Shown piece by piece: positions 4,209 to 18,628 of a DNA stretch of 48,095 nt. Below the pieces are notes generated by a model, which had not been told where the DNA came from, searched no databases, and was given only the letters and a program-made list of their open reading frames with translations. The translations under genes were made by a program, and so were the position numbers. Origin of the DNA: Bacteroidales bacterium (lineage in GTDB: Bacteria > Bacteroidota > Bacteroidia > Bacteroidales > VadinHA17); NCBI GenBank assembly GCA_025454755.1, contig JALONV010000008.1, forward strand, positions 1-48,095, in the 5' to 3' direction. The first letter of the stretch is position 1. Every line of letters starts with the position of its first letter.

Positions 4209-5696
4209 ATGAAATATGATGTTGTTATTATAGGAAGCGGACTCGGAGGTCTGTTATGCGGCAATATTTTAAGCAGGGAAGGATACAGCGTTTGTCTGCT
4301 TGAGAAGAATAACAAGCTGGGAGGCTCGCTTCAGACATTCGGAAGAAAAGGGTGCATTTTCAATACTGGACTGAACTATACGGAGAGCCTCGACGACGGA
4401 CAGATCCTCAACCAGTATTTCCGCTATTTCGGACTCATCGGCAAACTCAAACTCAGGAAGCTCGATGAAAACGGATTCGATATAATCAACCTGCCTTCAG
4501 GCAGATATCCGCTGGCAATGGGCCATGAGAACTTCAGGGAAACACTGCTGAAATATTTTCCTGAAGAAAATAACGGCCTCACCAATTATCTTGAGACAAT
4601 CAGGACCATTTGCTCATCCATCTCACTTTACAATCTTTCGGACAAGCCATTCAACATTATGGAATGTAACTCCCTGGGGATTGGTGCAGCCGATTATATA
4701 AAATCTGTAATTAAGAACCCAATATTGCAGAATATAATTGCCGGCAATAACCTGATGTATGCCGGACACGATAAGAAAACACCTCTTATGATCCATGCAC
4801 TTATAAATAATTCATTTATTGAAAGTGCATGGAGGGTAGTTGACGGAAGCCATCTGATGATAAACATACTTGCCGAAAACATTATCCGGAATGGGGGCAC
4901 TATTCATAAGAATGTAAAAGCCGAAAAATTCAAGACCGAAAACGGGAATGTCAAATCAGTGCTGATTGACAACGGAGAAGAGATTGAAGGAAAATATTTC
5001 ATTTCAAATACACATCCTGAACAGCTCCTCTCGATGATTGACGGGCTTAAGATCTCAAATGCTTTTTCATTCAGGATGAACAACCTCGAGGACACGATTG
5101 GGATGTTTACCCTGTATCTTGTCTTCAGGAAAGATTCATTTCCGTACCTGAATTACAATTTCTATCATTACAACCAGGACAACACCTGGATAGTCGGCGA
5201 ATACAATCAGGACAAATGGCCGCAGATGTATGCCCTGATGCCAACCGCCACCTCAAAATCAGAGTCTTACGCAGAGAGCGCATCGGTACTTACATACATG
5301 CATTACAGCGAACTGAAAAAATGGGAAAACACAAAAACAGGCAAGAGAGGAGATGAATACCTTCAATTCAAAAAGGAAAAAAGCAAAAAACTGCTGAGTG
5401 TCATGGAAAGACAATTCCCCGGTATTACAAGTTGTGTGGATGCTTACTATTCATCAACACCGCTGACATGGCGCGACTATACAGGCACCAGGGCAGGCTC
5501 GGCATTTGGATTACTCAAGGATTTCAACAAACCAATGGAATCGGTTATCCTGCCAAGGACAAAAATACCGAACCTTTTCCTCACCGGACAGAATACCAAT
5601 GTGCATGGAATACTGGGTGTTACAATAAGCTCGGTAATCACATGCAGTGAGATAATAGATATCCGTCATCTTATAGGTAAAATCAGGAATGCATAG
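4209..5696 (+). CDS. FAD oxidoreductase, CrtI/retinol-saturase-like, copy 1
   Basis: FAD-dependent oxidoreductase of the phytoene desaturase/carotenoid isomerase/retinol saturase superfamily, which adds, removes or isomerises double bonds in conjugated chains. The N-terminal dinucleotide fold is clear (VVIIGSGLGGLLCG, then LLEKNNKLGG, residues about 4-42), and the C-terminal FAD-binding signature LFLTGQNTNVHGILG lies near residues 455-470. At 495 residues it has the usual length. The next gene is a close paralogue by eye. Where that copy has the retinol-saturase-like FDTGMHYIGS, this one has FNTGLNYTES, so the conserved Asp and His are both Asn here and its chemistry may differ. It is the first gene of the forward operon; the gap to copy 2 is 24 bases. 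Acting on the aryl-polyene chain is inferred from context. Confidence 0.88.
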   Translation: MKYDVVIIGSGLGGLLCGNILSREGYSVCLLEKNNKLGGSLQTFGRKGCIFNTGLNYTESLDDGQILNQYFRYFGLIGKLKLRKLDENGFDIINLPSGRYPLAMGHENFRETLLKYFPEENNGLTNYLETIRTICSSISLYNLSDKPFNIMECNSLGIGAADYIKSVIKNPILQNIIAGNNLMYAGHDKKTPLMIHALINNSFIESAWRVVDGSHLMINILAENIIRNGGTIHKNVKAEKFKTENGNVKSVLIDNGEEIEGKYFISNTHPEQLLSMIDGLKISNAFSFRMNNLEDTIGMFTLYLVFRKDSFPYLNYNFYHYNQDNTWIVGEYNQDKWPQMYALMPTATSKSESYAESASVLTYMHYSELKKWENTKTGKRGDEYLQFKKEKSKKLLSVMERQFPGITSCVDAYYSSTPLTWRDYTGTRAGSAFGLLKDFNKPMESVILPRTKIPNLFLTGQNTNVHGILGVTISSVITCSEIIDIRHLIGKIRNA

Positions 5697-5720
5697 ACAA
5701 TTAACTCACATCACAGGCCG

Positions 5721-7211
5721 ATGAAGTACGATGTGGTAATAATCGGTGGCGGCCTCGGCGGTCTTCAATGCGGGTACATCCTGTCCCGTGAAGGATACAA
5801 CGTTTGTCTCCTTGAGAAAAACAGTCAGCTCGGCGGATGCCTGCAGACTTTCAGGCGTAATAACTCAATCTTCGACACCGGGATGCATTATATCGGCAGT
5901 ATGGACGAAGGCCAGGTGTTGAACAACTTCTTCAGGTATTTCGGCCTTTCCGGCAAGCTCAACCTGAAAAAAATGGATGAGAACTGTTATGATATTGTAA
6001 AATACAAAGACAAGGAATACAACTTTGCAATGGGGCATGAAAGGTTCATTGAAACAATGCTGGGGTACTTTCCAAATGAAAAAGAAGCCCTGTATAAATA
6101 TACTTCCAAGCTTAAGGAGATAACTGAATCAGTTGACCTGTTCAATCTTCGTGAATCCACTTATCATCAGACCGGATACCTTGACTTTTTCAGCATCGGG
6201 ATTGACGAATTCATAAATTCCACGACAAAGGATGAAACGCTGAAGAGCGTTCTGCTTGGATTGTCTCCGCTATATGCCGGAGTTAAGGAAAAGTCGCCTC
6301 TGTACCTGCCAATGATCATTCATTCATCCTTCATCAACAGTGCATACCGTTTCATTGACGGAGGATCTCAGATAAGTGAAATTCTTTCAAAAAATATCAC
6401 AGAAAACGGAGGTACCATAATGCGGAAGGCTGAGGTTACCCAGTTCATTTTTGATTCAGGTAAGATCAAAGCTGTTAAAATAAATAACTCGGAAATAATC
6501 GAGGGTGATACCTTCATCTCAAATATTCATCCTAAGACATTACTGAAGATCGCCGGGAACGCACCCCTGAGACCGGCATACAAATCCAGGATTGACAGCA
6601 TTGAAGAGACCACCGGCGCTTTCACTCTGTACCTTTCAATGAAGAAAGATGCATTTGAATACATTAACAGCAACTATTATGTATTCAAAACCGATAAAGT
6701 CTGGGAAGCTCAGAATTATTCCCGGGAAAAATGGCCGATGGGATACATGATGCATTTTTCTCCTTCTTCCGGAAATGAAAAATACACCAGTTCCATTATC
6801 GCCAATACGTATATGAGGTGGGAAGATGTGGTGCCATGGAAAAATACAACCGTTGAAAAAAGAGGTGACGACTACAGGGAATTCAAGAGGGTGAAAGCCG
6901 AAAAACTCCTCTCGGTTATTGAAACTGATTTCCCCGGGATAACTGCCAAAACTGAGTCATATTATACTTCTACACCCCTGACCTACCGCGACTATATTGG
7001 TTCTCCGACAGGGTCATTTTATGGTATACTGAAAGACTACAGGGACCCTCTCAGGAGTATGGTAATGCCGAGGACAACAATACCTAACCTTCTGCTTACC
7101 GGACAAAATATTAATGTTCACGGAGTAATAGGCGTCACTATCTGTTCAGTACTCACCTGCAGCGAAATAATTGGAACACAATACCTTATAAGCAAGATGC
7201 GAAAAGCCTGA
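5721..7211 (+). CDS. FAD oxidoreductase, CrtI/retinol-saturase-like, copy 2
   Basis: Tandem paralogue of the preceding gene: 496 residues, the same start (MKYDVVIIG) and the same order of motifs. The N-terminal FAD fold reads VVIIGGGLGGLQCG with LLEKNSQLGG, the substrate-region motif is IFDTGMHYIGSMDEG as in retinol saturases, and the C-terminal signature is LLLTGQNINVHGVIG near residues 455-470. Retaining Asp-Thr-Gly and His-Tyr-Ile-Gly suggests this copy keeps the ancestral reaction. Members of the superfamily can saturate, desaturate or isomerise polyenes, and the direction cannot be read from sequence. The start codon of the next gene follows after 3 bases, so translation is likely coupled. 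Confidence 0.88.
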   Translation: MKYDVVIIGGGLGGLQCGYILSREGYNVCLLEKNSQLGGCLQTFRRNNSIFDTGMHYIGSMDEGQVLNNFFRYFGLSGKLNLKKMDENCYDIVKYKDKEYNFAMGHERFIETMLGYFPNEKEALYKYTSKLKEITESVDLFNLRESTYHQTGYLDFFSIGIDEFINSTTKDETLKSVLLGLSPLYAGVKEKSPLYLPMIIHSSFINSAYRFIDGGSQISEILSKNITENGGTIMRKAEVTQFIFDSGKIKAVKINNSEIIEGDTFISNIHPKTLLKIAGNAPLRPAYKSRIDSIEETTGAFTLYLSMKKDAFEYINSNYYVFKTDKVWEAQNYSREKWPMGYMMHFSPSSGNEKYTSSIIANTYMRWEDVVPWKNTTVEKRGDDYREFKRVKAEKLLSVIETDFPGITAKTESYYTSTPLTYRDYIGSPTGSFYGILKDYRDPLRSMVMPRTTIPNLLLTGQNINVHGVIGVTICSVLTCSEIIGTQYLISKMRKA

Positions 7212-7214
7212 AAG

Positions 7215-8918
7215 ATGAGAATCGTAAAGAAAATATTGAAATGGAGTTTTCTGGCACTGGCAGCGTTTATTGTTTTTATGGTGGTCTGGTTCCTTCTGGT
7301 GGCTATTGACCATCCCCCTGTGTTAGCGGATAAATCAGCACTTGAAACGGAGCGTGTCCAGACAGGCGAAAATACTTACTTCGTTGGCAACAACTGGATA
7401 AGAAAAAGTGAAAGCGGGCTCTGGGAGATGTACATCGAAGGCGATCCGTTTGAGCGGGGTGTGGCTTTCGGCAAGCTTACAAAAGAACTGCTGCTTTACC
7501 AGGAGACAGCTTTCTTTGAGCAGATCAGGGAACTTGTTCCCTCAGACCGTTATCTCAAATTCCTGAAATACTTCCTGGCATGGTTTAACAGAAACCTCGA
7601 TAAAAATGTCCCTGAAGAATATAAGATTGAAATTTACGGCACGTCATTTTCGTGCTCTCCAGAATTCGATTTTATAGGTTCGGGATACCAGCGGCAGCTT
7701 AATTATCATGCAGCCCATGATATTGGACATGCCCTGCAGGGCCTCAATATGGTGGGATGCACTTCATTCTCGGTATGGGATGGACAGAGCGCCGATTCGA
7801 CTCTTATTGTCGGCCGCAATTTTGATTTCTTTGCCGGAAGAAAATTTGCCGAGAATAAAATTGTTTGTTTCTGCAAACCATCGGATGGATACAAATTCAT
7901 GATGATAACCTGGGCTGATATGATCGGTGTTGTTTCAGGTATGAATGAGAAAGGACTTACTGTAACTATCAATGCATCAAAGTCATCAGTTCCTTTAACG
8001 GCATCAACTCCTGTATCGCTTGTAGCCAGGGAAATATTGCAATATGCATCAAACATAGATGAAGCATATAAAATTGCAGGAAAACGCAGGATGTTCGTTT
8101 CAGAATCAATTCTTGTCGGATCAGCTGTTGACGGAAGATCAGCCATAATTGAAAAATCTCCCCGGAAACAGGATATAGTTTTACCTGAAGGCAGCCGCAT
8201 AGTCTGTGCAAACCATTTTCAGGGAAAAGCATTTCTTAACGACAGGCGCAATATTGAAAATATTCTTGGTTCCGACAGCAAATACCGCTTCGACAGGATC
8301 AATGAACTGCTGGATTCAGACAGTACTATCGATGTCGATGATGCAGTATCAATCCTGAGGAACAGAATGGGAAAGGAGAATGCCGATCTGGGTATGGGTA
8401 ATCCTCTGTCGGTCAACCAGCTGATAGCACATCATGCTGTGGTATTCAAACCATCGGAACAGACAGCCTGGATCTCAACTGACCCCTGGCAGCTGGGGAA
8501 ATTCGTAGCCTACGACATGCATAAGGTCTTTGCAATGACAGGCCCGGAAATAAGGAATAATGCGGAAATATATATACCAGGTCTTACGGTTCCGGCAGAC
8601 ACATTTCTTGTTTCAGATGATTATGCTTCCTTTGAAAAATATCTCCTGATGACCGATGAACTGGAACAATACTCCAGGGAAGAAAAAGTCCTGCCGCCTT
8701 CATTTGAAGAAAACTATGCTGAGTCCAATCCGATGCTCTATTCTACCTATTCACGGCTTGGAGATTATTACCGGAAGATTAAGAATTATTCCAAAGCATA
8801 TAATTATTATCAGATGGCTCTCTCAAGAGAAACAGCCGGAAATGATATCAGGGAAGACCTGAAAATATTATCTGACGAATCATTAAAAAAGATACAAAAT
8901 GCCGAAAAAGGAAATTGA
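7215..8918 (+). CDS. C45-family autoproteolytic acyltransferase/hydrolase with TPR-like tail
   Basis: N-terminal-nucleophile enzyme of the peptidase C45 / acyl-CoA:6-aminopenicillanate acyltransferase family. These proenzymes cleave themselves before a Cys and then make or break amide or ester bonds to acyl chains. An N-terminal membrane anchor spans about residues 9-31. The likely cleavage site and nucleophile is Gly-Cys182 in MVGCTSFSVWDG, followed by the family block LIVGRNFDF and the segment GVVSGMNEKGLTVTINA. The last 60 residues (YSTYSRLGDYYRKIKNY onward) resemble a tetratricopeptide helix pair. It overlaps the downstream ligase by 20 bases. The anchor places the catalytic domain outside the cytoplasm, so it may transfer or hydrolyse the finished aryl-polyene acyl group at the membrane; substrate and direction are inferred. 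Confidence 0.85.
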   Translation: MRIVKKILKWSFLALAAFIVFMVVWFLLVAIDHPPVLADKSALETERVQTGENTYFVGNNWIRKSESGLWEMYIEGDPFERGVAFGKLTKELLLYQETAFFEQIRELVPSDRYLKFLKYFLAWFNRNLDKNVPEEYKIEIYGTSFSCSPEFDFIGSGYQRQLNYHAAHDIGHALQGLNMVGCTSFSVWDGQSADSTLIVGRNFDFFAGRKFAENKIVCFCKPSDGYKFMMITWADMIGVVSGMNEKGLTVTINASKSSVPLTASTPVSLVAREILQYASNIDEAYKIAGKRRMFVSESILVGSAVDGRSAIIEKSPRKQDIVLPEGSRIVCANHFQGKAFLNDRRNIENILGSDSKYRFDRINELLDSDSTIDVDDAVSILRNRMGKENADLGMGNPLSVNQLIAHHAVVFKPSEQTAWISTDPWQLGKFVAYDMHKVFAMTGPEIRNNAEIYIPGLTVPADTFLVSDDYASFEKYLLMTDELEQYSREEKVLPPSFEENYAESNPMLYSTYSRLGDYYRKIKNYSKAYNYYQMALSRETAGNDIREDLKILSDESLKKIQNAEKGN

Positions 8919-10191
8919 AAATCTGAAGGCACCTGAAATTAAATCGTTCCAGGAAAAAGAGTTTGCCGGATTTCTTCAATATATTAACAGGAGCTCACGC
9001 TTCTACAAAGAACATTTCAAGGCTAACAGCATAAGAGTTGATAAGATCCGGAAACTTGAAGACCTGATTCATATTCCTCCCACCAGGAAAGAAGATCTCC
9101 AGAGGCGTTCTGCAGATTTCATCTGTGTAAAACGCAGTAAGATAATTGACTACCTTACAACATCAGGTACATCCGGTGACCCTGTCGCATTCGCCCTCAC
9201 TGAGAATGACCTGAAGAGACTTGCCTGCAATGAGTATCTTGGTTTCCGGTGTGCCGACTGCACAAAAAACGAGATCTTCCAGCTTATGACTACGATCGAC
9301 CGTCGTTTCATGGCAGGTATGGCATATTTTCTTGGATCAAGAAGGTTAAAGGCAGCGATGATACGTGTCGGGAACGGGATCCCTGAACTACAATGGGATA
9401 CAATAAACCGCTTTTCTCCGACAGCTCTTATTGCAGTGCCTTCATTTCTCATAACCATTATTGACTATGCTGAAAAGAACGGCATAGATCATCATTCTTC
9501 CAGTATAAATAAGGCAGTATGCATAGGAGACTCTCTGCGTAAAGCTGATTTCACATTTAACACCCTTGGCAGGAAGATCCATGACAGATGGCCTGAAATG
9601 CATCTCTACTCCACTTATGCCTCAACAGAAATGGCAGCATCGTTCACTGAGTGCAGGTATGGAGTTGGCGGTCACCACCATCCTGAAATGCTCATTGCTG
9701 AATTTCTTGATGACAATGATAATCCTGTTCCGCGGGGAGAAGCCGGAGAACTTACTATAACAACTCTTGGCGTTGAAGGAATGCCTCTGCTGAGATTTAA
9801 GACCGGTGATATATGCCAGGGCCATTATGAACCATGCAAATGCGGAAGGAATACGATGCGCGTTGGGCCTGTAATTGGCCGCAAAAACCAGATGATCAAG
9901 TACAAGGGAACAACACTCTACCCGCCTGCCCTCTATGATATTCTGGAAAATATCGAGGGCGTCAGAAACTATATTGTCGAGCTCTATACAAATACCATAG
10001 GCACAGATGAGATACTGATAAGAATTGGCTCAGAGGACCATTCCGAAAACTTTGAGAAGGCTATCAAGGACCATTTCAGGGCTAAGCTCAGAGTGGCGCC
10101 ATCGGTATCATTTGAGTCAGTTGATTACATTAATAAGCTTCAATACCCCAGCATGAGCAGGAAACCCGTTAAACTTATTGACAGAAGATGA
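8899..10191 (+). CDS. PaaK-like AMP-forming ligase for an aromatic or acyl starter
   Basis: Adenylate-forming enzyme resembling phenylacetate-CoA ligase, 430 residues. The ATP-binding loop is TTSGTSGDP at residues 87-95, then STYASTEMAASF, LRFKTGDIC and GRKNQMIKYKG (the hinge region). The C-terminal segment SMSRKPVKLIDRR carries lysines in the position expected for the catalytic Lys. A CxC...C cluster (HYEPCKCGRN) resembles the small metal-binding site of PaaK-type ligases. In an aryl-polyene cluster such a ligase would activate 4-hydroxycinnamate, 4-hydroxybenzoate or a related acid and load it on CoA or ACP. That role rests on neighbourhood; an exact substrate cannot be read. It is the last gene of the first forward operon and is followed by the repeat island. 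Confidence 0.86.
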   Translation: MPKKEIENLKAPEIKSFQEKEFAGFLQYINRSSRFYKEHFKANSIRVDKIRKLEDLIHIPPTRKEDLQRRSADFICVKRSKIIDYLTTSGTSGDPVAFALTENDLKRLACNEYLGFRCADCTKNEIFQLMTTIDRRFMAGMAYFLGSRRLKAAMIRVGNGIPELQWDTINRFSPTALIAVPSFLITIIDYAEKNGIDHHSSSINKAVCIGDSLRKADFTFNTLGRKIHDRWPEMHLYSTYASTEMAASFTECRYGVGGHHHPEMLIAEFLDDNDNPVPRGEAGELTITTLGVEGMPLLRFKTGDICQGHYEPCKCGRNTMRVGPVIGRKNQMIKYKGTTLYPPALYDILENIEGVRNYIVELYTNTIGTDEILIRIGSEDHSENFEKAIKDHFRAKLRVAPSVSFESVDYINKLQYPSMSRKPVKLIDRR

Positions 10192-10360
10192 AAGAGCCCA
10201 TTTCAGGCAGATGGTACATATTTATCAATTGTCTTAGATATTGTTTAAGTAATTTATATTTTTGAGAGTTCTCTGACATGTTTGATGCTTCGCCAGGTTT
10301 GTAGAAAAGAGTATTTGTTTCGGTTGGGAGATTCATGTGAAGCAGTTTGTGCTGAAGAAG

Positions 10361-10587
10361 GGAGATTCCTCGCTACGCTCGGATGTTGTGACAAAAGTTG
10401 TGGTGAGGGAGGAGATTCCTCGCTTCGCTCGGATGTTGTGACAAAAGTTGTGGTGAGGGAGGAGATTCCTCGCTTCGCTCGGATGTTGTGACAATAGTTG
10501 TGGTAAAGGAGGAGATTCCTCGCTTCGCTCGGATGTTGCGACAATAGTTGTGGTAAAGGAGGAGATTCCTCGCTTCGCTCGGAATGA
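10361..10587. repeat. 50-base tandem repeat, 4.5 copies
   Basis: Units begin at exactly 10361, 10411, 10461, 10511 and 10561, each with GGAGATTCCTCGCTTCGCTC (one substitution in the first). The first four continue with GGATGTTG and a TTGTGGT-containing spacer. The last unit instead ends in GGAATGACAT, the sequence of the intact arm of the palindromic element. The array therefore looks like local amplification of one arm plus spacer. Confidence 0.9.
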
Positions 10588-10606
10588 CATCATTTGGGTC
10601 TGTTAG

Positions 10607-10652
10607 GGGGGAGAGGCTGCGTGAAGCCGAGGCTTCACGCAGCCTCTCCCCC
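10607..10652. repeat. Perfect 22-base-pair hairpin at the core of a nested palindrome
   Basis: Arms 10607-10628 and 10631-10652 are exact inverted complements separated only by GA. The left arm starts GGGGGAGAGGCTGCG. The hairpin sits between a left flank ending GGAATGACAT (10581-10590) and a right flank starting GTCATTCC (10674), which are also inverted. The same layout recurs at 20926-21069 with a different core sequence. Confidence 0.9.
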
Positions 10653-10673
10653 AACCAATAACAATGGAAATCT

Positions 10674-10849
10674 GTCATTCCGAATGAAGCGAAGCGAAAT
10701 GAGGAATCTTCCTGCCTGATGACTGTTGTTCCCCAATGGAAGTCTGTCATTCCGAATGAAGCGAAGCGAAATGAGGAATCTCCATGCCTGATAACCCGTG
10801 AAATGAGTACAGGGTCATTCCGAATGAAGCGAAGCGAAATGAGGAATCT
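10674..10849. repeat. Three copies of a 36-base intergenic element
   Basis: Identical 36-base copies lie at 10674-10709, 10746-10781 and 10814-10849. Each starts GTCATTCCGAATGAAGCG and ends GAGGAATCT. Spacings are 72 and 68 bases, with partly similar spacers (CCTGCCTGAT, CCATGCCTGAT). Each unit is the inverted counterpart of the 10561-10590 arm. Related copies occur at 20926-21069 and 34364-34505. Confidence 0.9.
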
Positions 10850-10903
10850 TAATTATTAAATATCTGGAGTTCTGATAATAGTATAAACCAATATCATAAT
10901 AAA

Positions 10904-11275: not shown

Positions 11276-11278
11276 GCT

Positions 11279-11449: not shown

Positions 11450-11462
11450 GATAAGGATACTG

Positions 11463-11470: not shown

Positions 11471-11487
11471 GAATTTTATTTAAGATT

Positions 11488-11916
11488 ATGGATTTAATGA
11501 TCAGAACCCTGGTCCGGGTTCGCTTTAGTGATGTTGATTCGATGGGCGTAGTGTGGCATGGCCAGTATATCCGGTATTTTGAGGATGGCCGTGAAGATTT
11601 CGGCAATGTGCATAATATCAATTACCTGGATTTCCACGGAAGAGGGATACTGATCCCGATAGTAAAAATAAATTGTGACTATAAGAAACCCCTTATTTAC
11701 GGCGACACTGCTATCGTGGAAACCAGGTTCGTGGATACCGGGGCTGCAAAGATCATGTACGCATATACAATTTTTAACGAAAAAACAAACGAAATTGTTG
11801 CAACAGGCTCAAGCCTCCAGGTTTTCATTAATATGAAGCACGAACTGCTCCTGACATTCCCTCCTTTCTTTCTTGAATGGAAGAAGAAGCATGGACTGAT
11901 GACAGGATTAATTTAA
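11488..11916 (+). CDS. Hotdog-fold acyl thioesterase, 4HBT/YbgC-like
   Basis: Single hotdog-domain protein of 142 residues. The family motif is SDVDSMGVVWHGQYIRYFED, in which the Asp and the GVVxHxxY segment form the active site of 4-hydroxybenzoyl-CoA thioesterase and YbgC enzymes. These hydrolyse acyl-CoA or acyl-ACP thioesters. It heads the ketosynthase operon, 11 bases before the GTG of the first ketosynthase. In aryl-polyene clusters a thioesterase of this type is common and may release or proofread the acyl chain; the exact step is inferred. An in-frame ATG at 11497 is an alternative start that would remove three residues. Confidence 0.86.
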   Translation: MDLMIRTLVRVRFSDVDSMGVVWHGQYIRYFEDGREDFGNVHNINYLDFHGRGILIPIVKINCDYKKPLIYGDTAIVETRFVDTGAAKIMYAYTIFNEKTNEIVATGSSLQVFINMKHELLLTFPPFFLEWKKKHGLMTGLI

Positions 11917-11927
11917 AAGGACCTTAA

Positions 11928-13058
11928 GTGAGGGACGTTTATATATCAGCCGACAATATTATCACACCTGTCGGATTCACGACAGGTGAAAACGCAGCTG
12001 CCATTCTAGCAGGGAAGACCGGCATACAACTGATTGACGATGAAAAAATGTCTCCCGTTCCTTTCTATGCCTCCCTCGTTGATTCAAAAGTACTCAACAA
12101 CAGGTTTTCTTTATTCGACAATCCGGCGAATTATACCCGTTTCGAACAGATGGCAATCTGTTCAGTTAAAGATGCTTTGTCAAAAACCGATATTGTTCTT
12201 ACCGGTGAAAGAACCCTCTTCATCCTATCCACAACTAAGGGGAATATTGACCTCCTTGAGAAAGATCCTGAAAGCAAGAGGCTATACCTCTGGGATACTG
12301 CACATTTACTTCAGAAGTATTTCAGTTTCAGGAATGAACCCCTGGTAATCTCCGATGCATGCATCTCAGGCGTGCAGGCCGTGATAACAGGCGCAAGACT
12401 GATCAGAGCAGGATTATACGATACCTGTGTCATTAACGGTACAGATATAATCTCTGAATTTGTATTATCGGGCTTTAACTCGTTCAAGTCGCTGAGCACA
12501 GGACCATGCCGGCCATTCGATAAAACAAGGGACGGGCTCTCACTTGGCGAAGGTTCAGGAACCATAATCCTTACATCCTATTCTTCTGCCGGAGACAGCA
12601 GGAAAATAATTGCAGGTGAAGGATTTTCTACCAACGATGCAAATCATATATCAGGACCTTCAAGAACCGGCGAAGGACTGTTCATTGCCATCGACAGAAC
12701 ATTGAAGAAGAATCCTTTCAATATTGATTTCATCTCTGCCCATGGAACAGCAACACCATATAACGATGAGATGGAATCTATTGCAATAACAAGGGCAGGA
12801 CTTCAGGAGGTGCCGGTCAACAGCTTTAAAGGGTACTGGGGACATACACTCGGGGCAGCCGGAGTGATTGAATCCATTATGAGTATCTATTCAATAAGGA
12901 ACAGTATACTTTTCAGTACTTTAGGATTCAGGGAACCGGGTGTTTCAAATCCCCTGAACATCCTGAACACTTCCGTGAAGAAAGAGATAAATAATTGTCT
13001 GAAGATCGCATCGGGTTTCGGAGGCTGTAATGCAGCAATTATGTTTTACGGGAAATGA
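11928..13058 (+). CDS. Beta-ketoacyl-ACP synthase, first of two intact copies
   Basis: Ketosynthase of the FabF/FabB class, 376 residues, condensing malonyl-ACP with the growing chain. The catalytic triad is complete: Cys145 in DACISG, His272 in ISAHGTATPYNDE and His306 in YWGHTLGAAG, with a C-terminal GFGGCNAA glycine-rich end. The start is GTG at 11928; no nearby ATG fits. Its N-terminus is shorter than that of FabF and lacks some early conserved segments, typical of the small ketosynthases in aryl-polyene clusters. The stop overlaps the next start in ATGA, giving tight translational coupling. It probably works with the second intact ketosynthase and the chain-length-factor-like protein. 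Confidence 0.9.
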   Translation: MRDVYISADNIITPVGFTTGENAAAILAGKTGIQLIDDEKMSPVPFYASLVDSKVLNNRFSLFDNPANYTRFEQMAICSVKDALSKTDIVLTGERTLFILSTTKGNIDLLEKDPESKRLYLWDTAHLLQKYFSFRNEPLVISDACISGVQAVITGARLIRAGLYDTCVINGTDIISEFVLSGFNSFKSLSTGPCRPFDKTRDGLSLGEGSGTIILTSYSSAGDSRKIIAGEGFSTNDANHISGPSRTGEGLFIAIDRTLKKNPFNIDFISAHGTATPYNDEMESIAITRAGLQEVPVNSFKGYWGHTLGAAGVIESIMSIYSIRNSILFSTLGFREPGVSNPLNILNTSVKKEINNCLKIASGFGGCNAAIMFYGK

Positions 13059-13693
13059 AAGGAACTTATGCCATATCAGGTTATTGCTTAATCCGCGGAA
13101 ACAAGGTTATCAGGGACGAAAAACTACTATTTACGGGGAAGGGAGGCAGCTTCAGCGATTTTGCGCTCGAAAATTACAGGCACTTCTCGGTCTCCTATCC
13201 AAAGTTCCACAAGATGGACAACCTGGGTAAACTCGGATTTCTGTCTGCTGAGATCCTTCTGAAAGACAGGAACCTGACCGGTAAATATCCGGGGGAAAAG
13301 GTCGGGATCATACTTTCAAACTGTTCATCCTCTCTCGACACAGATCGCAATCATCAGAAAACCATCGCCAGCAGGAGTAACTATTTCCCAAGCCCTGCAG
13401 TTTTTGTATATACCCTGCCAAATGTCGTTATAGGTGAGATATGTATAAAGCATAAGTTCTTCGGCGAAGGAAATTTCTTTGTTATGGAGAAGTTCAATCC
13501 CTCATTCATAGTAGATTATATAACCCAATTGTTTGATAATGATATCTTTGATTGCTGCATAACCGGATGGACCGAAATCGACGGCAATAATTTTGAGTCG
13601 GTGCTTTTTTTAATTGAGAAAAGCACCAAAACTGAAACCGGAATTGCTAATTTTGGAACTGCGGCGATTGAGTCAATTTTTAACAGGAAATAA
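13055..13693 (+). CDS. Truncated ketosynthase-like protein without active-site Cys
   Basis: A 212-residue protein that looks like the N-terminal half of a ketosynthase: VGIILSNCSSSLDTD resembles the strand before the active site, and FVYTLPNVVIGEICIKH occupies the place of the Cys nucleophile loop. No nucleophilic Cys is present there, and the C-terminal half with the two catalytic histidines is missing. Such proteins recur next to the ACP gene in Bacteroidota flexirubin-type clusters. It is probably a structural or regulatory partner of an intact ketosynthase rather than a decayed copy, since the frame is intact and overlaps the upstream stop by 4 bases. The partner and function are not known to me. 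Confidence 0.72.
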   Translation: MKGTYAISGYCLIRGNKVIRDEKLLFTGKGGSFSDFALENYRHFSVSYPKFHKMDNLGKLGFLSAEILLKDRNLTGKYPGEKVGIILSNCSSSLDTDRNHQKTIASRSNYFPSPAVFVYTLPNVVIGEICIKHKFFGEGNFFVMEKFNPSFIVDYITQLFDNDIFDCCITGWTEIDGNNFESVLFLIEKSTKTETGIANFGTAAIESIFNRK

Positions 13694-13696
13694 TAT

Positions 13697-13954
13697 ATGG
13701 AACAGCTTGTACAGAAACTGAAGGAAGAAATTATCACAGCCCTGAATCTTTCGGAAATGAAACCGGAAAATATTGATGAGAAAGCACCTTTATTTGTCGA
13801 TGGACTTGGACTTGATTCCATAGATGCACTGGAGCTTACGGTTCTTCTCGAGAAAAAATACGGGCTTAAAATTCAGACCTCTGAAGAAGGTAAAAAAGTT
13901 CTCTATTCCGTCAGATCGATGGCTGAATTCATCAGGGAAAACAACAAGGGGTAA
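13697..13954 (+). CDS. Acyl carrier protein
   Basis: An 85-residue acidic acyl carrier protein. The phosphopantetheine attachment site is Ser41 in LGLDSIDALELTVLLE, with the usual helix II following. The chain is carried here as a thioester during elongation and dehydration. It sits 3 bases after the truncated ketosynthase and 6 before the second intact ketosynthase, which marks it as the dedicated carrier of the polyene pathway rather than the housekeeping AcpP. No phosphopantetheinyl transferase gene is visible in the window. Many polyene clusters carry a second ACP, also not seen here. Confidence 0.93.
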   Translation: MEQLVQKLKEEIITALNLSEMKPENIDEKAPLFVDGLGLDSIDALELTVLLEKKYGLKIQTSEEGKKVLYSVRSMAEFIRENNKG

Positions 13955-13960
13955 TCGCTT

Positions 13961-15166
13961 GTGTCAGTAAGAATTTACATAACCGGTGCAGGCATTATAT
14001 CATCAATAGGGCTTAATTACAGTGAGGTTCTCTTCTGCCTGAAGGCTTCAAAAGGAGGCATAGGGAGACTGACACTTCTGGATTCCGTTCATAAGGATGA
14101 AGTCCCTGTCGCCGAAGTAAAAGCCACAAATGAAGAGCTCAAGGGGCTTGCCGAAGTACCGGGAAAAGGTGTTTTTTCACGCACATCGCTGCTTGGCATT
14201 ATTGCAGCACGGCAAGCGCTGAAATCTGCAGGAATAGAAAAACCGTTTGACGTCAGAACCGGATTAATCTCCGCTACTACCGTCGGAGGCATGGACAGGA
14301 CCGAAAAATTCTTTAAAAAATATCTTAAAGATAAGAGTCACGGACGCTTAAGAGATGTCATAACACACGACATGGGCGACAGCACCGAAAAGATCGCAGA
14401 AGCCTGCGGGATAAGGGATTATGTTACAACAATAAGCACTGCCTGTTCGTCGTCGGCTAATTCAATACTTCTCGGATCAAGGCTTATAGAGAACGGATTT
14501 CTCGACAGGGCACTGGTGGGTGGTGTTGATTGCCTTACCCTTTTTACAATAAATGGTTTCAACAGCTTAATGATACTCGACAGTAACGGGTGCAAACCAT
14601 TCGATGAAGAAAGGAACGGCCTCACTCTTGGTGAAGGAGCCGGATTCCTTGTCCTTGAATCTGAACGTGTTGTTGCCAAAACCGGCAGGAAAGCAATGGG
14701 TAAAGTCACAGGGTATGGCAATGCATGCGATGCATTCCACCAGACCGCATCATCACCCGAAGGAGACGGGGCCTTCCTGTCGATGCAGAAAGCCCTTCTG
14801 AAAGCAGGCATCAGACCTGATCAGATAGATTATATCAATGCCCATGGCACAGGAACAAAAAATAACGATCTGTCTGAGGGAAAGGCTATCGAAAGACTAT
14901 TCGGCAATTCTGTTCCGCCATGCAGTTCAACCAAATCGTTTACCGGACACACCCTGGGTGCCGCAGGCGGCATTGAAGCTGTTTTCAGCGTGATGGCACT
15001 GGAGCAACAGTGCATATGGCCAAACCTGAACTTCACAAGAAAAATGAAGGAGCTTAAGTTTTTACCCGTTACTGATCTGAGAAACAACGTGCCTGTCAGG
15101 AATGTCCTTTCAAACTCATTTGGATTTGGAGGCAACAATACAAGTCTGATCTTTTCAAAACTCTGA
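13961..15166 (+). CDS. Beta-ketoacyl-ACP synthase, second intact copy (FabF-like)
   Basis: Full-length FabF-like ketosynthase of 401 residues with a complete triad: Cys162 in STACSSSAN, His295 in NAHGTGTKNND and His330 in FTGHTLGAAG. The glycine-rich C-terminus is SNSFGFGGNNTSL. The start is GTG at 13961, 6 bases after the ACP stop. Compared with the first ketosynthase it is longer and closer to canonical FabF, so it is the best candidate for the iterative elongating enzyme. The gene for the Cys-less homologue starts 1 base after its stop, an order reminiscent of ketosynthase/chain-length-factor pairs of type II polyketide systems. Confidence 0.93.
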   Translation: MSVRIYITGAGIISSIGLNYSEVLFCLKASKGGIGRLTLLDSVHKDEVPVAEVKATNEELKGLAEVPGKGVFSRTSLLGIIAARQALKSAGIEKPFDVRTGLISATTVGGMDRTEKFFKKYLKDKSHGRLRDVITHDMGDSTEKIAEACGIRDYVTTISTACSSSANSILLGSRLIENGFLDRALVGGVDCLTLFTINGFNSLMILDSNGCKPFDEERNGLTLGEGAGFLVLESERVVAKTGRKAMGKVTGYGNACDAFHQTASSPEGDGAFLSMQKALLKAGIRPDQIDYINAHGTGTKNNDLSEGKAIERLFGNSVPPCSSTKSFTGHTLGAAGGIEAVFSVMALEQQCIWPNLNFTRKMKELKFLPVTDLRNNVPVRNVLSNSFGFGGNNTSLIFSKL

Positions 15167-15167
15167 T

Positions 15168-16211
15168 ATGGAGGCGTTTATAAACGGACTTAGTGCGATA
15201 TCACCGCAAAACACCTTTGCTGAGGAAAAGCTTCTTCAGGAGCCAGGGGAATACTGCGACGTTCGCTTCATTAAGTGCCTTGAGCCTCAATATTCCGGAT
15301 TTATCGACCCGATGGCTGCCAGGAGAATGAGCCGCATCATTAAGATGGGTGTGTGTTCTGCGATTAAATGCCTTAAGGACGCAGGCATAAGAAATCCGGA
15401 TGCAATAATCACCGGCACCGGCATGGGCTGTGTTGAAGATACCGGGAAGTTCCTCATTTCAATCTACGAGAACGATGAGAAGCTGCTGAATCCCACGCCA
15501 TTCATTCAGTCGACACACAATACCGTCGGAGCTTCAATTGCCCTGGCGCTCAAGTGCAATAACTATAATAACACATACGGTCACCGGGGATTCTCTTTTG
15601 AAAGCGCCCTCCTGGATGCTATGATGCTACTGCAGGAAAAACAGGCTTGCGATATTCTTGTCGGTGCATTAGATGAACTGACTCCTGACCTTTTTACAAT
15701 TACCGACAGGCTTGGATTCTGGAAAAAGGTACCTGTAAATAATCTCTGTCTGAAAGATTCAAAAAGCAGGGGAAGCATTGCCGGAGAAGGGACGGCATTC
15801 TTTGCATTAAGCCGGCATAAAAGCGAAAAGAGCCTTGCCAGAATAAGCTCCGTGATGACATTCTTCAGACCTGAAAATATAACGGAGCTTCAAAACCGGA
15901 TAACGAGCATAGGGAAACCCGACCTTGTAATACTTGGCATAAATGGCGATCCTCAGGGAGATGAGATCTATTCTCATTTGAGGAAGGGTATATTTAACGA
16001 CATTCCAGCATTATATTACAAACACCTCTGCGGCGAATATGACACCTCGTCGGCGTTTGCACTTGCCATGGCTTCAGGAATCATCAGGGAACAACGCGTT
16101 CCGGACATAATGAAACTTGACGACATACCTGTTGGTGAGCTCCGGAACATTCTGATTTATAATCATCTTAGGAACGTCAATCATTCCGCCATACTGGTCA
16201 CATCATGCTGA
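15168..16211 (+). CDS. Ketosynthase-like chain-length-factor homologue
   Basis: A 347-residue ketosynthase homologue of the Ketoacyl-synt_2 (PF13723) type. Ketosynthase landmarks are present (VITGTGMG-like segment ITGTGMGCVEDT, GHRGFSFESALLDAM), but the nucleophile loop reads PTPFIQSTHNTVGASIA and contains no Cys. The C-terminal half lacks the paired His motifs. Relatives in aryl-polyene clusters are taken to be chain-length factors that form a heterodimer with an active ketosynthase. The start ATG follows the intact ketosynthase stop by 1 base, supporting a stoichiometric complex. The stop overlaps the deacetylase start by 7 bases. Role in fixing chain length is inferred from family and position. 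Confidence 0.82.
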   Translation: MEAFINGLSAISPQNTFAEEKLLQEPGEYCDVRFIKCLEPQYSGFIDPMAARRMSRIIKMGVCSAIKCLKDAGIRNPDAIITGTGMGCVEDTGKFLISIYENDEKLLNPTPFIQSTHNTVGASIALALKCNNYNNTYGHRGFSFESALLDAMMLLQEKQACDILVGALDELTPDLFTITDRLGFWKKVPVNNLCLKDSKSRGSIAGEGTAFFALSRHKSEKSLARISSVMTFFRPENITELQNRITSIGKPDLVILGINGDPQGDEIYSHLRKGIFNDIPALYYKHLCGEYDTSSAFALAMASGIIREQRVPDIMKLDDIPVGELRNILIYNHLRNVNHSAILVTSC

Positions 16212-16978
16212 GATATCAGAAGTTCAATATTGCTTTCACTGTACTGATTATTGCATTAACCATAAGTGATATTTTCTTGCATATCCATCTACTGGCTTAT
16301 GGTGGCATCATTCTTGCATTTATTGGCTTGCTGGCCTGGGGATCGTCAGACATCAGATCGGGCTGGTATGTTAAAACGTACTGCAAAGGCGATATGCAAA
16401 AAAGATCTTTATCGCTGACATTTGATGACGGACCGGATAAAATCGTCACTCCTGCCCTTCTTGATCTCTTAAGAAATGAAGATATCAAAGCCGCCTTCTT
16501 TTGCATCGGCAAAAAAGCAGAACAAAACCCGGATCTCCTGGCACAGATTGATAAAGATGGCCATGTTATCGGGGGACACAGTTATTCACATCATTTCTTC
16601 TTTGACCTGTTCATATCCGACAGGATGCTCAATGAGATGCAAAGATCAGAAGATATCGTTTTTAAAATCACCGGCAAAAGAATGAGATTGTTCAGGCCTC
16701 CCTATGGAGTTACCAATCCATTGCTGGCAAAAGCCCTGGAACAGAAAAACTATCATGTAATCGGATGGAGCCTCAGGTCGAAAGACACTGTAATTAAGAA
16801 TGAAGAAAAACTGTTTGAAAAGGTTGCGAAGAAAGTGAAGCCGGGAGATGTAATTCTCTTTCATGATACTCAGAACCACATGGTAAATGTTCTCGGGAAA
16901 TTCATCAAATTTGCAAAGGAGAACGGATTCACTTTTGAACGTCCCGACAAACACCTTGGAATTGAACCATATGGATAA
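16205..16978 (+). CDS. Membrane-anchored polysaccharide deacetylase (NodB domain)
   Basis: Carbohydrate esterase 4-type deacetylase of 257 residues. Two hydrophobic helices (about residues 8-50) precede the NodB domain. Motifs are TFDDGPD (catalytic and metal Asp at 74-75), GGHSYSHH (metal His125 and His129) and RPPYG. These enzymes remove acetyl groups from amino sugars or related amides using a divalent metal. A deacetylase is a recurring but unexplained member of Bacteroidota flexirubin-type clusters. The natural substrate here is unknown; a glycolipid or peptidoglycan-derived acceptor for the polyene is a guess. The stop overlaps the start of the LolA-like gene. Confidence 0.88.
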   Translation: MLRYQKFNIAFTVLIIALTISDIFLHIHLLAYGGIILAFIGLLAWGSSDIRSGWYVKTYCKGDMQKRSLSLTFDDGPDKIVTPALLDLLRNEDIKAAFFCIGKKAEQNPDLLAQIDKDGHVIGGHSYSHHFFFDLFISDRMLNEMQRSEDIVFKITGKRMRLFRPPYGVTNPLLAKALEQKNYHVIGWSLRSKDTVIKNEEKLFEKVAKKVKPGDVILFHDTQNHMVNVLGKFIKFAKENGFTFERPDKHLGIEPYG

Positions 16979-17612
16979 TTTTAAGTTACATATAATCAGC
17001 TTCACTTTGCTTATAGTGGTAGTATCTCTTCAGGCTCAGGAGTCCTTTAAACCAATGAGCGATATTCCCGGCTTTAAAGTGAGACTGGAGACCATGTCAA
17101 AATCCACCCTGAGCATTGCATGCGATTTTGTTCAGGAAAAGAACCTTGTGGTACTATCTGAAAAGATAATATCGAAGGGAGTCTTCTTTTTCAGGAAAGA
17201 AAACAAAATCAGGTGGGAATATACACAGCCTTACAGGTACCTGATAATTATAAGCAACGGCCGGCTATATACGCGCGATGATAAAAACCAGAAAGTGTAC
17301 GACATCGAATCAAATAAAATGTTCCAGGAAATGAACAGGTTCATCAGCGGTTGTATCCAGGGCGACATCCTGAAGAATGAAAGGGATTATGCCACCGAAT
17401 ATTTTGAAAGTTCAACCCGGTATCTTGTAAAGCTGGTTCCCAGGGAAGAGAAAATGAGACAGATGCTGAATGAGGTTAACATCTGGTTTGACAAAAACGA
17501 CCTGACCGTTTCAGGACTTAAGATGGTAGAATCGGGTGAAGATTACACAAAAATAATTTTCTTAAACAAGAAACTGAATACTGAGATTCCTCTTGAGAAA
17601 TTTACTTTTTAA
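16971..17612 (+). CDS. LolA-family outer-membrane carrier protein
   Basis: Periplasmic carrier of the LolA type, about 213 residues. The ATG at 16971 begins a good signal peptide (MDNFKLHIISFTLLIVVVSL, cut near QAQ); an upstream in-frame start would add 28 residues of deacetylase overlap and spoil the signal. The mature sequence has the LolA pattern of beta-strands, with SKGVFFFRKENKIRWEYTQP matching the family segment where a reduced lipoprotein is held in a half-barrel. In aryl-polyene clusters a LolA homologue is thought to help carry the hydrophobic product across the periplasm. It overlaps the deacetylase stop by 8 bases and the lipoprotein gene by 20. Confidence 0.86.
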   Translation: MDNFKLHIISFTLLIVVVSLQAQESFKPMSDIPGFKVRLETMSKSTLSIACDFVQEKNLVVLSEKIISKGVFFFRKENKIRWEYTQPYRYLIIISNGRLYTRDDKNQKVYDIESNKMFQEMNRFISGCIQGDILKNERDYATEYFESSTRYLVKLVPREEKMRQMLNEVNIWFDKNDLTVSGLKMVESGEDYTKIIFLNKKLNTEIPLEKFTF

Positions 17613-18252
17613 CATCCTTCTGATCCTGTTGCTGAGCGGCTGTTCTGCTTCGCTTTTCAATAATTACAGGGTTTATGACATGCAGGCTGCCCCTGATGAG
17701 AATTCCTGCTCGTGGTTCCGCGAAGACACGGGCCGCTACCTGTTTCAAAGCTCAATTGATATTTATAAGAATAATTTCAGCGGACTGCTCTTCGTAAAAC
17801 CTCTCAATGAAAGTCACCGCATTCTTTTTATTACGGAATTGGGGATCAAGATCTTCGACATGGAGTTCTTCAGAAAAGGAGATTTCAGGATACATTATTG
17901 CCTGGATGAGATGAACAGAAAATCCATTACAAACACTTTGGGAAACGATCTGTCGCTTATGATTTACAATATAGCGGATAACGGCACTGCTGAAGTGATG
18001 CAGGAGAGAAATGAAGGCAGGCTGGCAATTAAATCAGAAGATGGAAGAGGAACAAGATATTGTCTTATCAATAAAAAGACAGGAAAGATTGATGAACTTA
18101 TAAAGACCGGAACCTTTGCGAAGAAATTAAATATCAAATTCTTCAGCACAGCCGGGACAGCTCCGGATTCTATTGTTTTTACACACTATAACCTGAAATT
18201 AAATATTCATCTGACCAGGCTTGATGAAACCGGAACAATTATTTCTGAATGA
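17593..18252 (+). CDS. Outer-membrane-type lipoprotein of the polyene cluster, unknown function
   Basis: A 219-residue lipoprotein starting at TTG 17593, inside the end of the LolA-like gene. The lipobox is LLLSGC, with lipidated Cys at about residue 17. The rest is beta-rich without a motif I can name. Position right after a LolA homologue suggests it could be the membrane acceptor in a LolA/LolB-like relay for the cluster product, since Bacteroidota usually lack a recognisable LolB. That is an inference from order only. The 3' end overlaps the dehydratase gene by about 29 bases. Confidence 0.75.
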   Translation: MRNLLFNILLILLLSGCSASLFNNYRVYDMQAAPDENSCSWFREDTGRYLFQSSIDIYKNNFSGLLFVKPLNESHRILFITELGIKIFDMEFFRKGDFRIHYCLDEMNRKSITNTLGNDLSLMIYNIADNGTAEVMQERNEGRLAIKSEDGRGTRYCLINKKTGKIDELIKTGTFAKKLNIKFFSTAGTAPDSIVFTHYNLKLNIHLTRLDETGTIISE

Positions 18253-18628
18253 CCTGTACATTATCAAAAGCACTCATTCAGAGAGTGTTAATAAATTAAC
18301 AGTACAGGTCGGCATTAACCGTGACCACCTCATTTTCACGGGACATTTCCCGGGAAATCCGATCCTTCCCGGTGTCGCCACATTACAAATCCTGAAAGAA
18401 CTGATTTCAGCACATCGGGGATACACTGTCAGGCTTGTCAGGGCAGGTAATATAAAATACCTCTCCTTCATCAATCCGGAAAAGAATAACCTTGTTGATT
18501 TTGATATAGACCTGAAGGATACAGAGAATGGCAATATCGGCTGCAATGCCAGTATTCATTTTGAGGATACTGTTTTCTTCAGTTTCAAAGGAGAATTTTT
18601 AAAAGGAAAAATACTTAAGAAGAACTAA
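18224..18628 (+). CDS. FabZ-like hotdog dehydratase with Gln at the catalytic acid site
   Basis: Hotdog-fold protein of about 134 residues resembling 3-hydroxyacyl-ACP dehydratases. The FabZ loop is GHFPGNPILPGVATLQILKE with the catalytic His at position 41. At the position of the FabZ Glu (PGVxxxE) this protein has Gln. I recall the same replacement in related Bacteroidota cluster proteins, so it may be a subfamily trait rather than damage. It could dehydrate 3-hydroxyacyl-ACP using His with another acid, or bind acyl-ACP without catalysis. The ATG at 18224 is chosen over the adjoining TTG at 18221. It is the last gene of the polyene operon. Confidence 0.82.
   Translation: MKPEQLFLNDLYIIKSTHSESVNKLTVQVGINRDHLIFTGHFPGNPILPGVATLQILKELISAHRGYTVRLVRAGNIKYLSFINPEKNNLVDFDIDLKDTENGNIGCNASIHFEDTVFFSFKGEFLKGKILKKN

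What the first reader, a model, noticed from the sequence alone, without database searches (positions are those of the whole stretch)
4209..18628. Aryl-polyene/flexirubin-type cluster with four ketosynthase-like genes and extra redox and acyl-transfer genes
Seen: an overlapping operon with two ketosynthases having complete Cys-His-His sets (C145/H272/H306 and C162/H295/H330), two ketosynthase homologues lacking the Cys, one ACP, two hotdog proteins, a LolA homologue, a lipoprotein and a deacetylase, preceded by two saturase-like oxidoreductases, a C45 acyltransferase and a PaaK-type ligase. Known: aryl-polyene clusters contain ketosynthase/chain-length-factor pairs, ACP, dehydratase, thioesterase, ligase and LolA. 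Inferred: the product is an aromatic polyene ester or amide with tailored unsaturation, anchored at the outer membrane. DarA/DarB, aromatic lyase, ketoreductase and exporter are not visible.
Basis: partly seen in the sequence, partly recalled or inferred. Interest (0 to 1): 0.8.

Follow-up and report, generated by a model that had tools for sequence, protein, structure and literature searches.

The report
Ordinary flexirubin-type aryl-polyene pigment gene cluster
This is part of a well-known kind of bacterial gene cluster that builds yellow-orange aryl-polyene pigments for the outer membrane; the genes that looked extra are common parts of it, and most of the parts that looked missing lie on other pieces of the same genome.

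Summary
The genes at 4209-18628 belong to a flexirubin (flx) cluster. NCBIfam names the ligase FlxY (685.8 bits, cut-off 520) and the LolA homologue LolA2_flexi. The "missing" lyase, ketoreductase and exporter lie on contigs C45 and C108 of the same genome. C45 matches the window's first 735 bases at 94% and shares 78 exact end bases with C108. They encode FlxA, FlxB, a fifth ketosynthase, a second ACP, an MMPL-acyltransferase-methyltransferase fusion, a glycosyltransferase and a radical-SAM protein. The "extra" oxidoreductases and C45-family acyltransferase are common flx genes, found in the same position in Flavobacterium sp. 270. The two Cys-less ketosynthases are probable chain-length factors. 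DarA and DarB were not found, so the product may be an aryl-polyene lipid rather than a resorcinol ester. That is not rare: of 35 sampled genomes of the order with FlxA and FlxY, 18 lack DarB. But the two relatives closest by FlxY have DarB, and this genome is fragmented. New member of a known kind; low interest. One loose thread: a ladderane-type B12 radical-SAM enzyme in the cluster.

The parts
2..562 (+). 3' end of the MMPL-acyltransferase-methyltransferase fusion gene (exporter); the rest is on contig C45
   Evidence: 94.15% identity over 735 bases, no gaps, to C45; methyltransferase Pfam matches; full fusion on C45
2986..4182 (-). acyltransferase that also stands near FlxY in some other loci; possibly cluster-associated
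   Evidence: PF01553 23.4 bits, cut-off 23; homologue in 19 of 80 FlxY loci
4209..5696 (+). CrtI-like FAD oxidoreductase 1
   Evidence: PF13450, PF01593; CrtD/CrtI models far below their cut-offs; one or other oxidoreductase matched at 35% identity or more in 35 of 80 FlxY loci
5721..7211 (+). CrtI-like FAD oxidoreductase 2, 48% identical to the first
   Evidence: weak match to gamma-carotene desaturase 4rep, E=1e-9
7215..8918 (+). C45-family autoproteolytic acyltransferase/hydrolase with TPR tail
   Evidence: NF040521 226 bits, cut-off 85; TPR match, below cut-off; homologue in 47 of 80 FlxY loci
8899..10191 (+). FlxY, 4-coumarate-CoA ligase of flexirubin synthesis
   Evidence: NF053551 685.8 bits, cut-off 520
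11488..11916 (+). 4HBT-type thioesterase
   Evidence: PF13279 5e-19; same position in other flx clusters
11928..13058 (+). ketosynthase KSa with full Cys-His-His
   Evidence: PF00109/PF02801; residues C145/H272/H306
13055..13693 (+). KSb, half-size Cys-less partner, probable chain-length factor
   Evidence: no Pfam match; profile match to 6kxd_B, E=0.002; the top seven Foldseek matches are chains of ketosynthase/chain-length-factor or type II PKS ketosynthase entries, but none reaches E<=0.001 and the model is weak, pLDDT 62.8; in one open frame with the end of KSa in L097
13697..13954 (+). acyl carrier protein
   Evidence: PF00550
13961..15166 (+). ketosynthase KSc with full Cys-His-His, ApeO-like
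   Evidence: residues; best PDB match 6qsp_A, an ApeO:ApeC entry, only just ahead of FabF chains
15168..16211 (+). KSd, Cys-less, probable chain-length factor
   Evidence: PF13723; profile match to 6qsp_B E=1.8e-5, though seven other ketosynthase chains score higher
16205..16978 (+). polysaccharide deacetylase
   Evidence: PF01522 7e-33
16887..17612 (+). LolA2-type carrier for the pigment
   Evidence: NF053544 217 bits, cut-off 125
17593..18252 (+). putative lipoprotein (LSGCS at its N terminus)
   Evidence: sequence; no Pfam match; homologue at the same place in L047 and Flavobacterium sp. 270
18221..18628 (+). FabA/ApeI-like dehydratase
   Evidence: PF07977 6.5e-6 over cut-off; PF22818 6e-4 below cut-off

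Best explanation
The finding is the elongation, attachment and export part of a flexirubin-type (flx) aryl-polyene cluster in a Bacteroidales-like draft genome, split over three contigs. Inferred mechanism: FlxA (on C45) deaminates tyrosine to 4-coumarate and FlxY activates it to 4-coumaroyl-CoA (both reactions shown for the Chitinophaga pinensis homologues, PMC3992019). The ketosynthase/chain-length-factor pairs KSa/KSb and KSc/KSd, helped by the ketosynthase on C45/C108, extend it on ACPs with malonyl units. FlxB reduces, and the FabA-like and hotdog proteins dehydrate, leaving conjugated double bonds. The thioesterase may release the aryl-polyene acid. Acyltransferases put it on a lipid or sugar-lipid acceptor, and the MMPL exporter, LolA2 and lipoprotein carry it to the outer membrane. 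The CrtI-like oxidoreductases presumably adjust the polyene and the C45-family protein presumably moves an acyl group; neither role is shown. DarA and DarB were not found, so the end product is more likely an aryl-polyene lipid than a dialkylresorcinol ester.
For: FlxY and LolA2_flexi over curated cut-offs; FlxA 814.5 bits (cut-off 700) and FlxB 347.8 (cut-off 340) on C45. Contig ends overlap: C45/window 735 bases at 94.15%, C45/C108 78 exact bases. Flavobacterium sp. 270 has counterparts of these flx genes in the same order within blocks. In 9 of 10 order genomes whose clusters I fetched, FlxA-FlxB-FlxC ... KSa-KSb-ACP-KSc-KSd ... glycosyltransferase-MMPL-oxidoreductase ... FlxY share one contig in this order; in the tenth the held stretches cover it only in part. 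Catalytic residues. KSc closest to 6qsp_A, the ApeO:ApeC entry. No DarA match at E<=1; best DarB match 24 bits; no DAR-module gene on the three contigs.
Against: No chemistry and no expression data. The contig joins are inferred from end overlaps; one has 6% mismatch, read as strain variation. The set is not fixed: of the 10 fetched clusters only 6 match the C45-family gene and 6 the deacetylase, and only 35 of 80 FlxY loci match an oxidoreductase at 35% identity or more. The relatives closest by FlxY, G210 and G211, carry DarB (555 and 568 bits), so DarB may only be missing from a fragmented assembly (160 contigs, 97.8% complete). The DarA search had no positive control of its own. FlxB lacks its last 30 or so model positions in this assembly. 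The lipoprotein, KSb and the 138-residue C108 protein have no Pfam match.
Confidence: 0.88

Rival explanations
1. A complete flexirubin pathway with dialkylresorcinol: darA/darB exist in the organism but fell into an assembly gap.
For: The genomes of both loci closest by FlxY (L046, L047) have DarB over cut-off; in L047 it lies about 8 kb upstream of the C45-family gene, with BtrH, two ABC genes, ACP, two KS and an oxidoreductase between. 17 of the 35 sampled FlxA+FlxY+ genomes have DarB. The assembly has 160 contigs.
Against: Completeness is 97.8%. The stretch upstream of the oxidoreductases, which in L047 holds DarB-BtrH-ABC-ABC-ACP-KS-KS, here holds an acyltransferase and DUF5686. On C108 the LpxL-type gene is followed by the radical-SAM and hotdog genes without dar, and none of five DAR-module proteins matches the three contigs. 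18 of 35 comparable genomes lack DarB, several of them in only 20-30 contigs.
Confidence: 0.3
2. Ordinary fatty-acid synthesis genes wrongly read as a pigment cluster.
For: KS, ACP, dehydratase and ketoreductase are shared with type II fatty-acid synthesis.
Against: A stronger FabF-type ketosynthase is elsewhere, on C149, and FabH-type KAS III proteins too. FlxA, FlxB, FlxY and LolA2_flexi models pass their cut-offs.
Confidence: 0.03
3. A modified-polyene or ladderane-like lipid pathway: the B12 radical-SAM enzyme and paired CrtI-like oxidoreductases rebuild the polyene chain instead of leaving a plain aryl polyene.
For: TIGR04072 (lipid biosynthesis B12/radical SAM, 'ladder') 417 bits, cut-off 360, in the cluster on C108. 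It passes cut-off in 14 of 36 FlxA+ genomes against 4 of 162 FlxA- (Fisher p 7e-9, no correction for relatedness). Ladderane clusters also hold phytoene-dehydrogenase-like genes, radical SAM genes and a phenylacetyl-CoA ligase (PMC2649909, passages).
Against: CrtI-like genes also stand in flx clusters without this radical SAM gene (Flavobacterium sp. 270, B. ihuae). 22 of 36 FlxA+ genomes lack it over cut-off, and 5 of the 14 with both have DarB as well. Nothing shows the substrate.
Confidence: 0.08

Closest known systems
Flexirubin (flx) cluster of Chitinophaga pinensis and Flavobacterium
   Same: C. pinensis flxA-flxY: lyase FlxA, ligase FlxY, five ketosynthase-like genes, reductases, dehydratases, thioesterases, deacetylase, LolA, glycosyltransferase, exporter (PMC3992019, parts 1-2 of 5 read). 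Flavobacterium sp. 270: MMPL, CrtI-like oxidoreductase and C45-family gene as well, same order within blocks.
   Different: Blocks are reordered. darA/darB, BtrH and the ABC genes are not on the three contigs (only DarA and DarB were sought in the rest of the genome). Two tandem CrtI-like genes; a B12 radical-SAM gene.
Gammaproteobacterial aryl-polyene (APE) clusters of E. coli, Xenorhabdus, Acinetobacter
   Same: KS/chain-length-factor pair (ApeO/ApeC), a second KS (ApeR), two ACPs, LolA-like ApeL, RND exporter, lysophospholipid acyltransferase, glycosyltransferase (PMC8253772 passages; PMC8358021 passages and section 5).
   Different: Here the starter is predicted to come from tyrosine via FlxA and FlxY; two KS/CLF pairs; CrtI-like and C45-family genes.
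Aryl-polyene gene set of marine Flavobacteriia
   Same: PMC5932025 (passages and section 20) lists the aryl-polyene genes, with phenylacetate-CoA ligase and a 6-aminopenicillanic-acid-type acyltransferase, apart from the dar genes, and says that a flexirubin-type pigment arises when the dar proteins are present.
   Different: Those are Flavobacteriia.
Arylpolyene clusters of gut Bacteroides
   Same: A Bacteroides xylanisolvens cluster with synteny to the C. pinensis flexirubin cluster is reported (PMC12940132, passages); flexirubin clusters occur in five of six classes of Bacteroidetes analysed (PMC9248904, passages).
   Different: Their gene content was not compared here, except for the B. 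ihuae cluster and the part of the B. oleiciplenus cluster held in L090.
Ladderane fatty-acid clusters of anammox bacteria
   Same: Radical SAM, phytoene-dehydrogenase-like, CoA-ligase and FabF-paralogue genes together (PMC2649909, passages).
   Different: No aromatic lyase is named in the passages seen; ladderane synthesis is called unknown in that paper's abstract.

Membership tests
Flexirubin/aryl-polyene (flx) cluster | tyrosine ammonia-lyase FlxA | tested here: met
   NF053541 814.5 bits, cut-off 700, on C45
Flexirubin/aryl-polyene (flx) cluster | 4-coumarate-CoA ligase FlxY | tested here: met
   NF053551 685.8 bits, cut-off 520
Flexirubin/aryl-polyene (flx) cluster | ketosynthases, ACP, ketoreductase, dehydratase | tested here: met
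   FlxB 347.8 bits is only just over its cut-off of 340 and its end is missing
Flexirubin/aryl-polyene (flx) cluster | outer-membrane route: LolA2 and MMPL exporter | tested here: met
   NF053544 217 bits; MMPL fusion on C45
True flexirubin (dialkylresorcinol ester) | DarA and DarB | tested here: not met
   DarA no match at E<=1 (no positive control in that call); DarB best 24 bits; none on the three contigs. An assembly gap is not excluded.
True flexirubin (dialkylresorcinol ester) | pigment with polyene acid esterified to dialkylresorcinol | not testable with these tools
   needs cells and mass spectrometry
Gammaproteobacterial APE cluster | ApeO/ApeC-type KS-CLF heterodimer with half-size CLF | tested here: inconclusive
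   KSc matches ApeO; KSd (347 aa) reaches ApeC only as a profile; KSb (212 aa) has the half size but a weak match
Ordinary type II fatty-acid synthesis | housekeeping genes without pigment-specific partners | tested here: not met
   stronger FabF-type gene on C149; flx-specific models passed
Ladderane cluster | radical SAM of TIGR04072 type | tested here: met
   417 bits, cut-off 360, on C108; one shared feature does not make it a ladderane cluster
Ladderane cluster | ladderane lipids | not testable with these tools
   needs lipid analysis

The most novel reading that the evidence does not exclude
In this and related genomes, flx clusters without dar genes but with a ladderane-type B12 radical-SAM enzyme and paired CrtI-like oxidoreductases make a chemically rebuilt (methylated, cyclised or isomerised) aryl-polyene lipid, attached to an acceptor other than dialkylresorcinol: a pigment class not yet isolated.
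Probability: 0.15. Interest if true: 0.55.

Novelty: new member of a known kind. Interest (0 to 1): 0.2.

Why it matters
As found it mainly adds one more flx cluster. It is useful in two ways: it shows that the CrtI-like and C45-family genes often belong to flx clusters although their roles are unknown, and it adds a case in which dar genes were not found, so the attachment point of many aryl polyenes in this order is an open, testable question. Bacteroides oleiciplenus YIT 12058 is a named strain in which to test it (FlxY locus, FlxA, no DarB match above 33 bits).

Tried and rejected
Rejected: plain fatty-acid synthesis (separate FabF-type gene, flx-specific models). Rejected: the oxidoreductases and C45-family acyltransferase as special to this genome. 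Left open: a missing dar locus; a radical-SAM-modified polyene. KAS III proteins were examined as DarB candidates: five were scanned (two on C18, one each on C74, C81 and C5) and reach at most 56 bits with the DarB model, cut-off 550; the 255-residue C132 fragment was read but not scanned.

Led nowhere: AlphaFold models of KSb (mean pLDDT 62.8) and KSd (49.9) were weak; only KSb was taken to a fold search, where no match reached E<=0.001. No solved relative of the C45-family domain by sequence at E<=0.001. One search was wasted on a 33-residue fragment given by mistake. Paper searches brought up no description that I saw of DAR-less Bacteroidales flx clusters with a radical-SAM gene, but for most hits only the listing was seen.

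Counting choices: DarB was counted present at 472 bits or more, below the curated 550, so near misses count as present; with the strict cut-off 17 of 198 genomes have it. The order sample of 198 genomes carried the same handles. The lists for one search were copied by hand from those calls. The ten clusters were chosen because FlxA and FlxY share a contig, not at random. The Bacteroides ihuae stretch (G202) holds the same sequence as sampled genome G165, so the two are one and it is not counted twice; G145 and G215 also look like one genome (same coordinates). The counts (38 and 39 of 80 for the two oxidoreductases) include matches at 21-27% identity; at 35% or more 35 of 80 loci match either one.

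Full report
Observation. The window is the whole contig C91 of a 2.9 Mb, 160-contig, 97.8% complete genome (contig length). The genes described at 4209-18628 exist there and fit the stated families. Aligned with the genome's own FabF-type protein, KSa (11928-13058) has C145/H272/H306 and KSc (13961-15166) has C162/H295/H330; KSb (13055-13693) and KSd (15168-16211) have none of the three. The genes fall in two blocks, 4209-10191 and 11488-18628, separated by repeats and a small desulfoferrodoxin-like gene.

What it is. Two window proteins pass flexirubin-specific NCBIfam cut-offs: FlxY, 685.8 bits against 520, and LolA2_flexi, 217.4 against 125. A search of the genome for ketosynthases found more of them on contigs C149, C108 and C45. 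C45 (8628 bases) carries FlxA (814.5 bits, cut-off 700), FlxB (347.8, cut-off 340), the start of a ketosynthase gene, a glycosyltransferase-DUF2062 protein and an MMPL-acyltransferase-methyltransferase fusion. C108 (4748 bases) carries the rest of that ketosynthase (highest NCBIfam score with a KAS I model, below cut-off), an ACP, an LpxL-type acyltransferase, a B12 radical-SAM protein of TIGR04072 (417 bits, cut-off 360) and a 138-residue protein without a family match, which I call a hotdog protein from recall; homologues of it stand at one position in other flx clusters. C45 and C108 share 78 exact end bases, and C45's first 735 bases match the window's first 735 at 94.15% without gaps, on the opposite strand. 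I read this as one stretch of about 60.7 kb, of which the cluster takes about 31 kb, broken by strain variation; the joins are inferred.

Comparison. A scan of named genomes with an FlxY alignment gave 596 pattern matches (limit reached), 571 confirmed, 80 kept; records very near the window's genome may be left out there. These 80 loci hold at most 10 kb on each side and are often cut short. Of them 35 match one of the oxidoreductases at 35% identity or more, 47 the C45-family gene, and 33 both; among the 63 loci with at least 5 kb held before FlxY the numbers are 33 and 41. A frequent order there is MMPL - oxidoreductase - C45-family - FlxY, as in all four Flavobacterium loci (L106, L114, L121, L124). 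In Flavobacterium sp. 270 the fetched stretch reads FlxA, FlxB, FlxC, ACP, LpxL-type, a distant oxidoreductase (24%), DarA, DarB, two hotdogs, BtrH, two ABC genes, thioesterase, KSa, KSb, ACP, KSc, KSd, deacetylase, LolA, lipoprotein, FabA-like, glycosyltransferase, MMPL, oxidoreductase, C45-family, followed by FlxY. So the genes of the finding have counterparts there, in the same order within blocks. Among ten clusters fetched from the order, nine show the core order, but only six match the C45-family gene and six the deacetylase. Published work fits: Chitinophaga pinensis flxA-flxY has five putative ketosynthases and shown lyase and ligase activities (PMC3992019, parts 1-2 of 5 read); the aryl-polyene gene set of Flavobacteriia includes a 6-aminopenicillanic-acid-type acyltransferase (PMC5932025 section 20).

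Ketosynthase pairs. KSc's best solved relative is 6qsp_A, just ahead of FabF chains; the entry is titled ApeO with its chain-length factor ApeC. A KSd profile reaches 6qsp_B, which I take to be ApeC, at E=1.8e-5, with seven other ketosynthase chains scoring higher. A KSb profile reaches 6kxd_B at E=0.002, from an entry titled ketosynthase/chain length factor; the weak KSb model (pLDDT 62.8) gives chains of that kind of entry (ishigamide KS/CLF and the AntDE type II PKS ketosynthase) as its top seven Foldseek matches, none at E<=0.001. In L097 the end of KSa and all of KSb lie in one open frame. Half-size chain-length factors are known in aryl-polyene clusters (PMC8358021 section 5). I conclude two KS/CLF pairs, moderately supported.

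Dialkylresorcinol. Reference DarA and DarB came from L073 (DarB 566 bits, cut-off 550; DarA has no specific model and is named by position and size, from recall). DarA gave no match at E<=1 and DarB 24 bits at best in the window's genome. The DarA call had no positive control, but the same query finds homologues at 44-51% identity in Flavobacterium sp. 270 and G186. DarA, DarB, BtrH and the two ABC proteins have no match on the three contigs. In a sample of 198 genomes of the order, FlxY passes cut-off in 41, FlxA in 36, both in 35; of the 35, 17 have DarB at 472 bits or more and 18, this genome included, do not. Against the DAR-less reading: the genomes of the two loci closest by FlxY (71%), L046 and L047, have DarB at 555 and 568 bits. 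Of 14 named-locus genomes, 9 pass the DarB cut-off, 2 reach 499-518 bits, and 3 (loci L090, L092, L125) have nothing above 33 bits; 13 of the 14 have FlxA over cut-off. In L047 the end of DarB, BtrH, two ABC genes and an extra ACP-KS-KS set stand upstream of the oxidoreductase, C45-family gene and FlxY, where this window has an acyltransferase and DUF5686.

Radical SAM. TIGR04072 passes cut-off in 18 of 198 order genomes: 14 of 36 with FlxA, 4 of 162 without (Fisher p 7e-9, not corrected for relatedness). Among FlxA+FlxY+ genomes it is in 9 of 18 without DarB and 5 of 17 with it. Ladderane clusters share radical-SAM, phytoene-dehydrogenase-like and CoA-ligase genes (PMC2649909, passages). This is the part I would call least explained, and it lies outside the window.

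Verdict. A known kind of pigment cluster in a new genome. Interest is low; the attachment chemistry in DAR-less clusters and the radical-SAM gene keep it above zero. The same-genus genome in the sample (G112) has neither FlxY nor FlxA over cut-off, so the cluster is patchy even within the genus.

Noticed in passing
window 10190-10903: Tandem 50-base repeats (10361-10610), three 62-base repeats (10662-10863) and a 22-base perfect inverted repeat (10607-10652) between FlxY and the next gene; they create spurious ORFs.
   Followed up: partly
window 10904-11275: Small exported-looking protein with a desulfoferrodoxin (superoxide-reductase-like) match, 1.8e-7, with a homologue beside FlxY in 1 of 80 loci, L047.
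   Followed up: partly
L008 1187-2545 (contig C108): Ladderane-type B12 radical-SAM protein inside the flx cluster, associated with FlxA in the order sample.
   Followed up: partly
L007 7655-8314 (contig C45): FlxB matches its model only to position 207 of 239; its end looks altered, by mutation or assembly. Not mended.
   Followed up: no
L013 and L014 (contigs C18 and C132): Two similar loci with KAS III-like genes beside an AMP-ligase gene, resembling an olefin-type cluster from recall; duplicate or strain variant.
   Followed up: no
L047 1-6742: The end of DarB, BtrH, two ABC genes and a second ACP-KS-KS set upstream of the oxidoreductase-C45-FlxY block in a close relative.
   Followed up: partly
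L149, L155, L145 (genomes G185, G101, G106): DAR-less flx clusters with variant genes: a methyltransferase-like and a further radical-SAM-like gene (G185, G101), and a small membrane protein near the deacetylase's usual place (G185, G106). Names are from reading the sequences, not from a family search.
   Followed up: no
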